From assembly GCF_026151205.1 (NCBI RefSeq), contig NC_087081.1:2361246-2425245 (forward strand): a stretch of 64,000 nucleotides of DNA, read 5' to 3'. This DNA comes from Bolinopsis microptera (lineage: Eukaryota > Ctenophora > Tentaculata > Lobata > Bolinopsidae). This document shows, in pieces, positions 1,965-48,000 of this stretch. Below the pieces are notes generated by a model. The model searched no databases. It worked only from the letters and a program-made list of their open reading frames with translations, and had not been told where the DNA came from. The first letter of the stretch is position 1, and every line of letters begins with the position of its first letter. Position numbers and translations under genes: made by a program.

Positions 1965-4900
1965 TCACCCAAATTCAATGTCATCAGGGTCTTCTTCGAG
2001 ACAATTTATGGGAGAAGGAGATCTGTACATGTGACTGCCTCTTTGAAGAGGTACCTGAAGATATAGAAATAAAACTGTGTTTGCCAATAAATTATAAATA
2101 AATTGGATAACCCTACACCACAATTAAATAATAGTCATGGTATTGGGATGCACATAATTAGAATATGAAATAATATCTGTGAAACAGTTACATACCAAAT
2201 GTTCCTGATGGCCAACTCTGCTTATGTGTTGTTCTTGGAGACGTAGTTGAAGATTTAATTCATCTACATGATCTTGTAATGCTAAGTTTTGAGATAACAA
2301 ACTTTGCTCTCCATTTTGGCTCTTGTCTCCGATGACTGAAATTTTTATCTTTAGAAGACAGAGACCCAGCTCCAGAAATTTTAGATGATTATTACATGCA
2401 ACATGAACATCTGTTAAATGAAGTCAAGAAAACAACAAATTTCAAGAAAACAGTTTCAAATAACTTTCAAACAAACACTTTTATAAACGTTCTAAGTTCA
2501 GCTCTTTTTATTATTTTGGTTGATATTAGGATCACAAAGATAGTGAAACAAATTTTAGTGAAACAAATTTAAAATTTTATCCTTTATTTTACAATCATAA
2601 TATAATAGTATTTATAAGCCTCCGTTTTGAAAGTTTTAAATTTTAATATATTCACATTTCTATTTAAAATTCAATTTTATGTATAAGTCAATAACTGGCT
2701 GCCAAAGCCGCGCAATTATGAAAACAGGATTAACTTGTTTATAGTTATACGACAAATAGAAATAAATTTAAAACTATCCGTTTTTTTAAATAAATTATAG
2801 TCTTAAACCTAAATCCAAAGCCAGCTTTGTAATATTTACTAGATTAGATCATAATATATCGTCAATTCTAAATATTTACAGTGCAACATTTCATTAATCT
2901 ATAAACAAGCGTACTCCAGCCCCTACACGCATCCATTCTAATGCGGCGCGGCTCAAGCCGCGCATGCACGTATTATTTTATATTTTTTGCTTTCTGATAA
3001 ATATCGTGTCAATGTGTACGAATAAATGTTCATGTTTTGTGTAAACCGAATCCAGTTGAGATTAGTGACAAGGATAAGGACCCAAGTGCCTGTACGGCTT
3101 TTTCGGACCCCTGTGGACCACTACTCTTGAAATTGCTCTACAACTATTGAACATTTATAACTGTTATATAATATATAATAATCCAGTATAGTATAATGAT
3201 TAACTTTAAGATAGTATACAATACAGTTTCAGTAGTTGACCCATACAGTTAAGTCCGTCATAACTCACAATCGTTTAATCATTTGTCAATTGTCAAAGTT
3301 GTTGTGTGTTTATTTGCTGAGATAGCAGTAAGATAAGTCTTATGTAGTAAATTGGTATTGAGAGAGAAAACCAATTCCAATCAAGCACACAATATCTATT
3401 AAGTAACTGGATCAGCTATTGTCAGAATCAAAGACAGACTTAAGCCAACTTGGGGGGGGTCCAACTACAAAAAATACGAATACGAATTTCAAATTTTAGG
3501 GGTGCGTTCGTATTTTTTCGTATTTTTTCGTATTTTTTACCAACATTTTTTTACTCTAGAAATAACTAAATATCCCAGAGAAATGGATCTATAAATTCAT
3601 TGGTATTCTCCGTTGTATCTTCGTATATTACACTGTATGACATCAGAGAAGATAAATAAGAGGCAGCAAAACTGGTGAACAAATGAAAATACAATACTAC
3701 GATTACCTACTAATTAATAATTGGAGTTTAGCTGCTTGTCAATCTCACGTAAGCGTAAATGTCAAAATCACTGGGATATTATCACAATTCAGATATCATG
3801 ATGTATTAATTGTGATTTATAAAGGTCTTTGAATGCTTCATCACAGAATATTATTGCCAAATACGTCTGGTAAGTTGGGTTCCTAAAACGAAATTTAATC
3901 AGCTTCGGTTGAACCCATTATATATTATAATAGTTTAGCTCTTTCTAGTCCCCTGCTACACGGCATGTAAACAGGGATTGGCTAGTTAGAGGCGGTCCGT
4001 GTAGGCCTTACACTGTGCTTTCAGCAATACTCATAATATATAGACTATATATGGCACATTCATATTAATATTCTATCAGATCTTTCTGAGGTTTCTAGGC
4101 GATATAGGTAGCTATTTCTGTACTTAAATATGACAAGAAATCGATTGGTGGTGGTCCCAGAACCCCAAAATGGTTTCTTGTTCTAAACAAGAATCGTTTC
4201 GTCCGAAAAACAACACACTGTCGTATCAACTCTTGTTTGACAGAAACATCCACCCGGTCCACAATTGAAAGAGGTACGGTTGGTAATAACAATCGTAAAA
4301 AATAGCGAACGCTTTAGTAACTTTTGATTTAAATTGTCTCCACAATTTGTAACAGGCTATCTGCAGAAATGGGTAGCACGGTTAATGACCATGGTCCTTT
4401 CTCAAACTTCCAATCCTCAGTTAGATACAAAGAATAGTCTACACAATTTTTAATAACATTAAAAGGGATGAAAATCACTTTATTTATCAAAATCTTTATT
4501 CATCATGTAACAACTTTTCCATAGTACTGGAGAGTAAAACTCTCTTAAACAAAATAATTCTCGAGCACATTTTGAGGCAGTAACAGTAACATGTCAATAT
4601 GTTACAGACTCAAATGCGTTTAAAAACATTTTAGTAACAATAAATTGTGTAAACTGATGAGGAGGAGGAGGAGGACTGATGAAGAGGAGCACTGAGGAGG
4701 AGGAGGAGGAGAAGGAGGAAGAGGACTGGGGAAGACTGACGAGGAGGAGAAGGACCGAGGAGGACTGAGGAGGAGGAGGAGGACTGAGGAGGAGGAGGAC
4801 TGAAGAGGAGAGGGAGGACTGTCGGACTGAGGAAGAGGAGCAGGATTGGTGAGGAGGAGGAGGAGGAAGAGGAGGACTGAGGAGGAGGACTGATTAGGAG

Positions 4901-45000: not shown

Positions 45001-48000
45001 AGGACTGAGGAGGAAGAGGAGGAGGATAAAGAAGAGGAGGAGGACCCAGGAGGAGGACCCAGGAGGAGGACTCAGGAGGAGGAGGAGGACTCAGGAGGAG
45101 GACTCAGGAGGACTAAGAAGGAGGAGGACTGAGGAGGATGGCTGAGGAGGATGGCTGAGGAGGATGACTGAGAGGGAGGAGGAGGAGGAAGAGGAGGAAG
45201 AGGACTAAGGAGGAGGAGGAGAAGGACTGAGGAGGAGAAGGAGGACCCAGGAGGAGGAGGACCCAGGAGGAGGAGGACCCAGGAGGAGGACCCAGGAAAA
45301 GGCCCCAGGAGGAGGAGGAGGACTGGGGAGGAGGAGAACTGTTGAGGACTGATGAGGAGGACTGAGGACGAGGAGGAAGAGTAGGAGGAGGACTGAGGAG
45401 GGGAGGAGGAAGAGGACTGGGGAGGATCAGGAAGACCCAGGAGGACCCTGGAGGAGGAGGAGGACCCAGGAGGACTGAGGAGGACTGAGGAGGACTGAGG
45501 AGGAGGACTGACGATGACTGAGAAGGAGGAGGACTGAGGAGTACTGAGGAGGATGGCTGGGGAGGATGGCTGAGGAGGATGACTGAGGAGGATGACTGAG
45601 AGGGAGGAGGAGGAGGACTCAGGAGGAGTACTCAGAACTTCAGAAGGAAGAGGAGGAGGACTCAGGAGGAGGACTCAGGAGGAAGACTTAGGAGAAATGA
45701 GAAGGAGGACTGAGAAGAACTGAGTAGGAGGAGGAGGAGGAGGACTGAATAGGAGGAGGAGAAGGAGGGGGACTGGGAGAGGACTGGGGAGGAGGAGGAC
45801 TGATGAGAAGGATGAGGAGGAGGACCCAGGAGGAGGAGGACTGAGGACCGAGGAGGAAGAGGAGGAGGATGAAGAGGAGGAGGAGGACCCAGGAGGAGGA
45901 GGACTGAGGACTGAGGAGGATGGCTGAGGAGGATGACTGAGAGGGAAGAGGAGGAGGAGGAGGAGGAGGACTGAGGAGGACTGAGAAGGAGGAGGAGGAG
46001 GAGGACTGAATAGGAGGAGGAGGAGGGGGACTGGGGGAGGACTGAGGAGGAGGATGGAGGACTGAGGAGAAGGATGAGGAGGAGGACTGAGGAGGACTGA
46101 GGAGGAAGAGGAGGAGGATAAAGAAGAGGAGGAGGACCCAGGAGGAGGACTCAGTAGGAGGAGGAGGACTGGGGAGGAGGAGGACTGTTGAGGATTGATG
46201 AGGAGGACTGAGGACGAGTAGGAGGACTGAGGAAGGGAGGAGGAAGAGGACTGAGGAAGATCAGGAAGACCCAGGGGGAGGAGGAGGAAGAGTAGGAGGA
46301 GGAAGCATCTAAATGTTATTTCCATTTTTGTCCGTTTTTGTCCATTTTTGTCCGTTTTTGTCCGCTCTATTTTTTGTCCGTTTTGAAAATATAGGGTACC
46401 GAACGGACAAAAAACATGATCCCCCCTATAACAGCAAAAATTGAACATTTTATTTAGCAATTTAGGTGTCCATTAATGTCCGCCTATGTCCGCCTATGTC
46501 CGCCTATGTCCTTCTATGTCCGCCTATGTCCGCCTATGTCCGTCTATGTCCGCCTATGTCCGCCTATGTCCTGTCCTTTTTGGATTCTATGAGACAAGCG
46601 GACATAGACGGACGTGACACCCCCCCCATTATTGATAGCATTCGGTATTAGCAGTTTATAGAAAATAATAAATAGTCATACACCTGTGAGTATGACAATT
46701 TTCCCTTGTGACTTGCCAACACAACCTTTTAGCCAAATTAAATTTTTGCTAAATTTGATTTGGCTTAATTGAGTGACACAATCGCTCTTATAAAGACCAG
46801 ATAAACTTGGATAATTGCATTATTGTATATCGCAAAGATTTTCGACTACATGCTGCATGCATGATGCATGGGGATCTGCTGACTAGTTCAAGAAATTCCT
46901 GGTTTTTTACAGCATGGCCATGACTGGACGCGCGCGCGCCGGCGCGCATGTATACGACAGGCTGTGCAGATTACTTTACATGACTTTCGTAACATGCGCG
47001 CGGCGTAAACGTAGTACAACTTTTGTAACCGTTCCAAAAGAAGTTTTGCGCAGCATGATCTCATGTTTCAAATAACATAATTTGCTCACAAACTTGATAC
47101 ACAGATTCTTCTTGCTGCACAAATAATCACATGCAAGTAGCCGGTAACTTCTTATTTTACATGGTAAGTCTTATGGAAGAAATGTGGACTGTGATAAGAG
47201 TACGAGACGATGCTCGAAAAATTTGAGTTAAATTTTCCTTTGAAAACAGGAAAATTGTACAGTTTACTAGAAAGAAACCTTACCCGAATAATCCAAAAGT
47301 TTACAGTGTAAAATTACCTGAGCCCGAAGTTCTAGTGGGTCGGTCTCCATTCATAACGACAGCAGATCTTGCTCGAGTCAGCTCTATTTCATCTTCCAGC
47401 GAATCTGACAGTGCTTCTGATAACTGACTGTCCCGCCACGCCTGTATGGTAATTAATGAAGAGGGGGGGCCTTGTTAAGTCAGGGGCCAGGGAGGGGGGG
47501 CCTTGTTAAGTTCACATTCTAATTATATGTTCAAGTGGGTGCTCGTATAACAATTATGTGACAACAGTTAATTTAATTTAACTCGGTACATATTGATGAG
47601 TTTTTAATGTAGTGCATATTTTTTAATATGATCCAGTGATTCTGTGCTCATGGTACTAGTTTGATTGTAAAAGCCATTTAAATTCACCAAAGTTACCTTA
47701 ATAATGTTATCGTCCAACTGAACGACTATGTGCGGTCGTCGCATAATTGGGTCCCATACTTTCTTTTCTCGCATCGCTTTATCAAGAATCTGAATATATG
47801 AAGTTCAGTATGCCCAGATTTTAAGGAGAAGAATAATCAGAAAGTAATTAAAAACATGTTAATTGACAATGTTAATTGACAATTGAAATGTAAAATACTA
47901 AAAAGGGTATTAAAACCATTAACTCACATCTTTAGGCACACTGATGTTGGGATTATCAGTGTACGGTTCCCAGTTATAGAGATCCTCAATAATTATGGGT

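What the first reader, a model, noticed from the sequence alone, without database searches (positions are those of the whole stretch)
3452..46626. A family of poly-G/poly-C-ended mobile elements with 7-8 bp target duplications
Three separate insertions (3452-8081, 37616-39504, 43067-46626) share a design: a G run at the left tip, a C run at the right tip, inverted ends beyond it, and flanking duplications CCAACTT, GTCTAATC and CATTATTG. Sequence inside the G run differs between elements, so they are distinct subfamilies with one architecture. None encodes a transposase. Duplication length would suit hAT, P or Merlin-like transposases, but homopolymer tips are not a usual terminus for these. 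This is the strongest candidate here for an undescribed element class.
Basis: partly seen in the sequence, partly recalled or inferred. Interest (0 to 1): 0.85.

Follow-up and report, generated by a model that had tools for sequence, protein, structure and literature searches.

The report
Poly-G-tipped nonautonomous DNA transposons
Three stretches of this genome are pieces of mobile DNA that carry no moving enzyme of their own and end in long runs of G and C; similar ends recur in several families here, and which enzyme moves them is still unknown.

Summary
Elements A (3452-8081), B (37616-39504) and C (43066-46627) have a G run at the left tip, a C run at the right tip and flanking duplications. 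Their tips recur in the same 265-Mb genome: 25 (A), 123 (B), 379 (C) hits, 0 in reversed controls. B copies are about 1% diverged.

B's core points the same way at both ends, 70 of 70 cores in 34 insertions.

'Undescribed class' is not shown. GG termini with 8-9-bp duplications fit Merlin (PMC8101967), and this genome has 58 Merlin transposase matches, but no Merlin gene was found in an A, B or C copy. hAT and MULE genes are also present; P was not tested. The same kind of tip occurs on a family whose two copies read here duplicate TTAA (699 tips), so it does not mark one superfamily. Best reading: several recently mobile nonautonomous DNA transposon families with an unusual end type and an unidentified transposase, Merlin being the leading candidate.

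The parts
3452..8081 (.). Element A: G8 at the left, C31 at the right; flanks share CCAACTT (3445-3451 and 8080-8086, its CC lying in the C run)
   Evidence: 25 tip hits in the genome
3463..3525 (+). Left copy of A's terminal direct repeat (asymmetric core with inverted 10-bp repeats on either side)
   Evidence: local alignment, direct score 97 against 82.5 for the inverted comparison
7985..8047 (+). Right copy of A's terminal direct repeat, same orientation
4085..7156 (.). Inside A: from about 4085 a stretch that is a separate repeat (38 further places at 95-98% over 4085-4640), then a GAG-rich array 4659-7156
   Evidence: where that repeat ends was not established
37616..39504 (.). Element B: G15 at the left, C7 at the right; 8-bp duplication GTCTAATC at 37608-37615 and 39505-39512
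   Evidence: 123 tip hits
37633..37734 (+). Left copy of B's terminal direct repeat with core
   Evidence: direct score 191 against 53 inverted; 70 cores of 70 in one orientation over 34 insertions
39394..39494 (+). Right copy of B's terminal direct repeat, same orientation
38123..39097 (.). Tandem array of a 326-bp unit inside B
43066..46627 (.). Element C: G8 at the left, C8 at the right; duplication CATTATTG at 43059-43066 and 46627-46634 (edges ambiguous because of the runs)
   Evidence: 379 tip hits with up to 2 mismatches, the 100 listed all exact
43078..43134 (+). Left copy of C's terminal direct repeat with core
   Evidence: direct score 103; the inverted comparison, which runs through the 10-bp repeats, scores 100
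46546..46603 (+). Right copy of C's terminal direct repeat, same orientation
43358..46303 (.). GAG-rich tandem arrays inside C

Best explanation
A, B and C are nonautonomous cut-and-paste DNA transposons. A transposase supplied by other elements acts on their end modules and makes an 8-bp staggered cut in the target; the leading candidate is one of this genome's Merlin transposases. I suppose that it binds the subterminal 10-bp repeats and core, and cuts at the outer edge of the G:C run. The runs are most simply terminal GG/CC extended by replication slippage and then carried along when the element moves. Shown: repeated insertion, 8-bp duplication (B), inverted tips, same-direction cores, recent spread of B, no transposase in the copies read. 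Inferred: the cut-and-paste mode, the binding sites, the slippage, and Merlin. Odds: nonautonomous transposon of some DDE superfamily about 0.95; Merlin as the source about 0.45.
For: Tip counts with 0 in the reversed controls. 28 of 34 B insertions have an exact 8-bp duplication; 2 have 7 bp (L046, L051); L041 has 8 bp if two G of the run are counted; L042 has it after an interrupted tail; L039 and L050 were not resolved. B left ends lie 0-2.5% from their majority sequence in 28 of 29 copies compared (L048 has a nested insertion there), median 1.4% over both ends. L057 has two right ends inside one 8-bp duplication, so the outermost ends suffice. Merlin has terminal GG and 8-9-bp duplications. 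58 Merlin matches, 18 of them in stop-free frames of 295 aa or more. The two Merlin loci read beyond the gene have tandem arrays of 11-bp period downstream, as A, B and C have arrays of 10-bp period near their ends. The C run beside the duplication is 7 or more in 28 of 28 exact copies although it was not selected for, so runs seem inherited rather than grown anew from GG.
Against: No Merlin match lies inside an A, B or C copy (25 of 25, 99 of 123 and 100 of 379 tips checked; the nearest is 8.5 kb in from a B tip, beyond that element's end). The Merlin locus read in full length (L059, 3.6 kb) showed no G/C run above 5 and no paired ends. The second (L060) was cut off before its end; a search for G6 close to its repeat gave 1 hit, not beside that gene, against 2 in the control. 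L057's partial Merlin gene has no G/C run longer than GGGGG within 500 bp of its stop. hAT and MULE genes are also present, and one hAT match lies 4.3 kb in from an A tip (C8, not read). Tips of the same kind occur on a TTAA-duplicating family, so the tip is no marker of Merlin.
Confidence: 0.5

Rival explanations
1. The same, but moved by another 8-bp superfamily present here (hAT, MULE) or not tested (P).
For: hAT: 150 matches (150 of 365 candidates scored); MULE: 88 matches. One hAT match lies 4.3 kb in from an A tip (0.17 expected within 12 kb for A), and one broken MULE match 4.4 kb in from a B tip; neither was read.
Against: From recall, hAT termini begin CA/TA and P termini CA, not GG. 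The hAT match may lie outside that A copy. None lies inside a C copy among 100 of 379 tips.
Confidence: 0.35
2. The homopolymers are made or renewed at each transposition, for example by untemplated C added to the 3' ends of the excised element, or because the transposase recognises the homopolymer itself.
For: G and C runs of B have the same spread (means 15.5 and 15.3; KS p 0.998), are uncorrelated with each other (r -0.04) and show no clear link with divergence (rho 0.00 for G, 0.35 with p 0.06 for C, in which the G value of L049 is an artefact). No C run below 7 abuts the duplication in 28 exact copies. The tips occur on families with 8-bp and with TTAA duplications.
Against: Ordinary slippage of inherited runs gives the same picture, and interrupted runs (L032, L042, L047, L050) look like mutated and slipped runs.
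Confidence: 0.15
3. Small LTR retrotransposons (TRIM-like), since the ends are direct repeats.
For: Terminal direct repeats of about 60-100 bp with noncoding interiors.
Against: 8-bp duplications in 28 of 34 copies (LTR elements give 4-6, from recall); tips are G...C, not TG...CA; inverted outer tips; each module carries inverted 10-bp repeats.
Confidence: 0.03
4. The runs are sequencing or assembly errors.
For: Homopolymer lengths are error-prone in long-read assemblies (general knowledge); reads were not available.
Against: Runs of 7 or more abut the duplications at both ends in 28 of 28 exact B copies. Errors may blur the lengths but would not place runs there.
Confidence: 0.03

Closest known systems
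Merlin superfamily (PMC8101967, passages only)
   Same: Terminal GG, 8-9-bp duplications; tandem repeats inside some families; Merlin transposase genes present in this genome.
   Different: Long homopolymer tips and same-direction end modules are not mentioned in the passages seen; no A, B or C copy with a Merlin gene.
KolobokP (PMC9587614, passages incl. abstract)
   Same: Terminal direct repeats that carry their own inverted tips; composite-like layout; 5'-RR...YY-3' termini.
   Different: KolobokP encodes a Kolobok transposase and a nuclease, its repeats are about 450 or 660 bp, and its solo repeats have 3-5-bp duplications; here modules are 60-100 bp, the duplication is 8 bp, the inner tips are lacking, and a minimal solo unit of A was not found (0 hits).
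Foldback-type elements such as Tetris of Drosophila virilis (PMC4079207, outline and abstract)
   Same: Nonautonomous, ends built of tandem repeats, satellite-like arrays inside.
   Different: Their long ends are inverted; here the cores are direct. Duplication length was not looked up for Tetris.

Membership tests
Merlin | Terminal GG | tested here: met
   G run at the left and C run at the right tip of A, B, C; but this also holds for the TTAA family, so it is weak
Merlin | 8-9-bp target duplication | tested here: met
   B: 28 of 34 exact 8 bp; C compatible; A 7 bp
Merlin | DDE_Tnp_IS1595 transposase in the element or in a relative with the same ends | tested here: not met
   none in A, B, C of the window; no match inside the tips checked (25 of 25, 99 of 123, 100 of 379). 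Such genes exist elsewhere in the genome. A nonautonomous element need not carry one, so membership stays unproven
Merlin | Ends shared with this genome's Merlin-encoding elements | tested here: inconclusive
   L059 shows no such ends in 3.6 kb, L060 was cut off
hAT | hAT transposase in a copy with these ends | tested here: inconclusive
   150 matches; one 4.3 kb in from an A tip, not read
MULE | MULE transposase in a copy with these ends | tested here: inconclusive
   88 matches; one broken match 4.4 kb in from a B tip, not read
P superfamily | P/THAP9-type transposase in the genome | not tested
   the two requests did not complete
KDZ (Zisupton and kin) | KDZ transposase in the genome | tested here: inconclusive
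   0 matches, but the controls rang nowhere either
KolobokP | Terminal direct repeats with their own inverted tips | tested here: met
   direct repeats in A, B, C; inverted tips and arms, but the inner G/C tips are missing
KolobokP | TTAA-type 3-5-bp duplication | tested here: not met
   8 bp in B
LTR retrotransposon / TRIM | TG...CA ends and 4-6-bp duplication (recalled) | tested here: not met
   G...C ends, 8 bp

The most novel reading that the evidence does not exclude
The G:C homopolymer is made or renewed in each round of transposition, or is itself what the transposase recognises, so that the cut lies at a variable distance from the unique sequence; and this end type is shared in one genome by elements with different duplications (8 bp and TTAA).
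Probability: 0.15. Interest if true: 0.85.

Novelty: new variant of a known kind. Interest (0 to 1): 0.55.

Why it matters
DDE transposases are usually thought to cut at a fixed distance from their binding site. Young copies with 7-28 G and 7-27 C between the duplication and the first unique base (28 exact B copies) question how that cut is set, and make it testable. Same-direction end modules with an 8-bp duplication would add to KolobokP as a second composite-like layout in eukaryotic DNA transposons. If a Merlin source were confirmed it would be an odd end type of a known superfamily; if not, the source enzyme is still to be found.

Tried and rejected
Autonomous copies of B: 7 long or unresolved B loci were inspected for open frames. 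Three of the long frames are reverse transcriptases (L053, L057, L040). L054's frame has no Pfam family; it looks Penelope-like to me from recall. L039's long frames look like a LINE by eye and were not scanned. None looks like a transposase; the other frames were not scanned.

Co-location of transposase matches with tips: no Merlin in a copy; one hAT and one MULE match in the inward direction of a tip, unread. One of the two B tips of the tandem pair at C2:21572044/21572175 was left out, hence 99 of the 100 listed.

Merlin tip guesses: L059 has no paired ends; G6 near L060's repeat gave 1 hit against 2 in the control; a GGGGG 424 bp beyond the Merlin stop in L057 could not be followed up.

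Origin from a solo end unit: a 76-base minimal unit of A has 0 hits at up to 3 mismatches, so there is no support for it from A; units with other repeat numbers would be missed.

Age as cause of run length: no clear link.

Literature: ten searches of the open PMC library brought no listing that I recognised as poly-G/C-tipped transposons; only three papers were opened, and subscription journals and Repbase are not held, so this is weak evidence of novelty.
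Full report
What is there. B is flanked by an unambiguous 8-bp duplication. C fits 8 bp with edges blurred by the runs. A shares 7 bp, two of them inside its C run.

Copies. Patterns from the tips give 25 hits for A, 123 for B and 379 for C (C with up to 2 mismatches; the 100 listed are exact), and 0 for the reversed patterns. For B, 33 insertions besides the window's were read, 34 in all of 123 tips. 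Of these 34, 28 have an exact 8-bp duplication directly against the runs and 2 have 7 bp. L041 has 8 bp if two G of the run are counted, L042 has it after an interrupted C tail, and L039 and L050 are unresolved. Lengths of the 28 run from 997 to 7437 bp, median 1471.5; three of the longer ones contain reverse-transcriptase frames, and B sequence lies on both sides of the inserts in L040, L053, L054 and L048.

Architecture. Alignment of the two ends of each element also shows direct repeats: about 63 bp in A, 102 in B and 57 in C. Each module holds an asymmetric core between 10-bp repeats and their reverse complements, which is why the ends look inverted as well. For A and C the inverted comparison scores nearly as high (82.5 against 97; 100 against 103), because it runs through the repeats; for B it is clear (53 against 191). 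In 34 B insertions, 70 of 70 cores point the same way, and every insertion has at least two. As B copies descend from one ancestor this counts as one event; A and C make three. A minimal solo unit of A was not found (0 hits).

The runs. In the 28 exact B copies the G run is 7-28 (mean 15.5) and the C run 7-27 (mean 15.3), uncorrelated (r -0.04), with the same distribution (KS p 0.998). The C run was not part of the search pattern, so its minimum of 7 is not a selection effect; the G minimum partly is. Copies are young: left ends are 0-2.5% from the majority sequence in 28 of 29 copies compared, median 1.4% over both ends; L052 was dropped by hand and L053 by the matching rule, and some right ends score higher because of structural differences. 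No clear link of run length with divergence was seen (the G value for L049 in that call is an artefact). I infer that long runs travel with the element or are renewed on insertion, and are not regrown from GG each time.

Not one superfamily. Other G/C-run tips turned up in the fetched DNA (80 runs of 9 or more in 290,685 bases, most of them B tips). L050 holds a 146-bp element with runs at both ends and the 8-bp duplication TAAATTGG. L016 holds one end with a G30 run and 10-bp repeats. L034 and L048 hold two members of another family, F, with G25/C83 and G12/C8 tips; both duplicate TTAA, and for L048, which sits inside a B copy, three other B copies (L040, L043, L046) show the uninterrupted site. 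F has 699 tips in the genome, 0 in the reversed control; among the 100 listed there are 27 inward-facing pairs, 13 of them exactly 1351 bp, and no outward-facing pair. The outermost nine bases differ between the two F members read, each the same at its own two ends, and F2's tip CCAATGG equals B's. So homopolymer tips go with at least two kinds of target duplication.

Source of the transposase. The genome holds Merlin (58 matches, 18 with a stop-free frame of 295 aa or more), MULE (88) and hAT (150, of 365 candidates) genes. KDZ gave 0, but the controls did not ring either. P did not complete. Merlin is described with terminal GG and 8-9-bp duplications (PMC8101967, passages), which fits best. 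Two Merlin loci read here have arrays of 11-bp period downstream of the gene. Against this, no Merlin match lies in an A, B or C copy among the tips checked, and the ends of Merlin-encoding elements could not be seen: L059 shows none in 3.6 kb, L060 is cut off, and a pattern test was negative. One hAT match lies 4.3 kb in from an A tip and one broken MULE match 4.4 kb in from a B tip; neither was read.

Mechanism. The precise 8-bp duplications and the L057 composite, in which two right ends sit inside one duplication, fit cut-and-paste movement directed by the outermost ends. Binding to the 10-bp repeats and core is inference. How the cut is set at the edge of a run of 7-28 bases is the open question.

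Comparison. KolobokP (PMC9587614, passages) is the closest layout: direct repeats with their own inverted tips, described there as unlike any other DNA transposon. It differs in duplication, repeat length and coding content. Foldback elements such as Tetris (PMC4079207, abstract) share repeat-built ends but inverted. I found no paper listing on poly-G/C-tipped transposons in ten searches of an open library; Repbase was not available.

Verdict. Real, recently mobile, nonautonomous DNA transposons; an unusual variant, not shown to be a new class.

Noticed in passing
L034:1828-2943 and L048 (inside its B copy): Family F: palindromic elements with G/C-run tips and TTAA duplications; the two read copies share the interior but differ in the outermost nine bases, the same at both ends of each copy.
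   Followed up: partly
B tips and L048's F copy: B (8-bp duplication) and the F copy in L048 (TTAA duplication) share the tip G run + CCAATGG; chance or exchange of tips is open.
   Followed up: no
L050:3574-3719: A 146-bp element with G and C runs at its ends and the 8-bp duplication TAAATTGG.
   Followed up: partly
L049:240-1940: A 132-bp tandem copy of B's left end together with its flanking duplication.
   Followed up: partly
window 4085-7156: A contains a separate repeat (38 further places at 95-98% over 4085-4640) that leads into a GAG-rich array.
   Followed up: partly
G000:C6 15.35-15.82 Mb: Several Merlin (8) and MULE (5) matches, and one hAT match, lie close together here.
   Followed up: no
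window 57488-59610 and 15632-17125: Tandem arrays with units of 52 and 317 bp, 97-98% alike.
   Followed up: no
window 53469-54875 and 40275-40763: Frames with an SRCR domain and a sulfotransferase domain.
   Followed up: no
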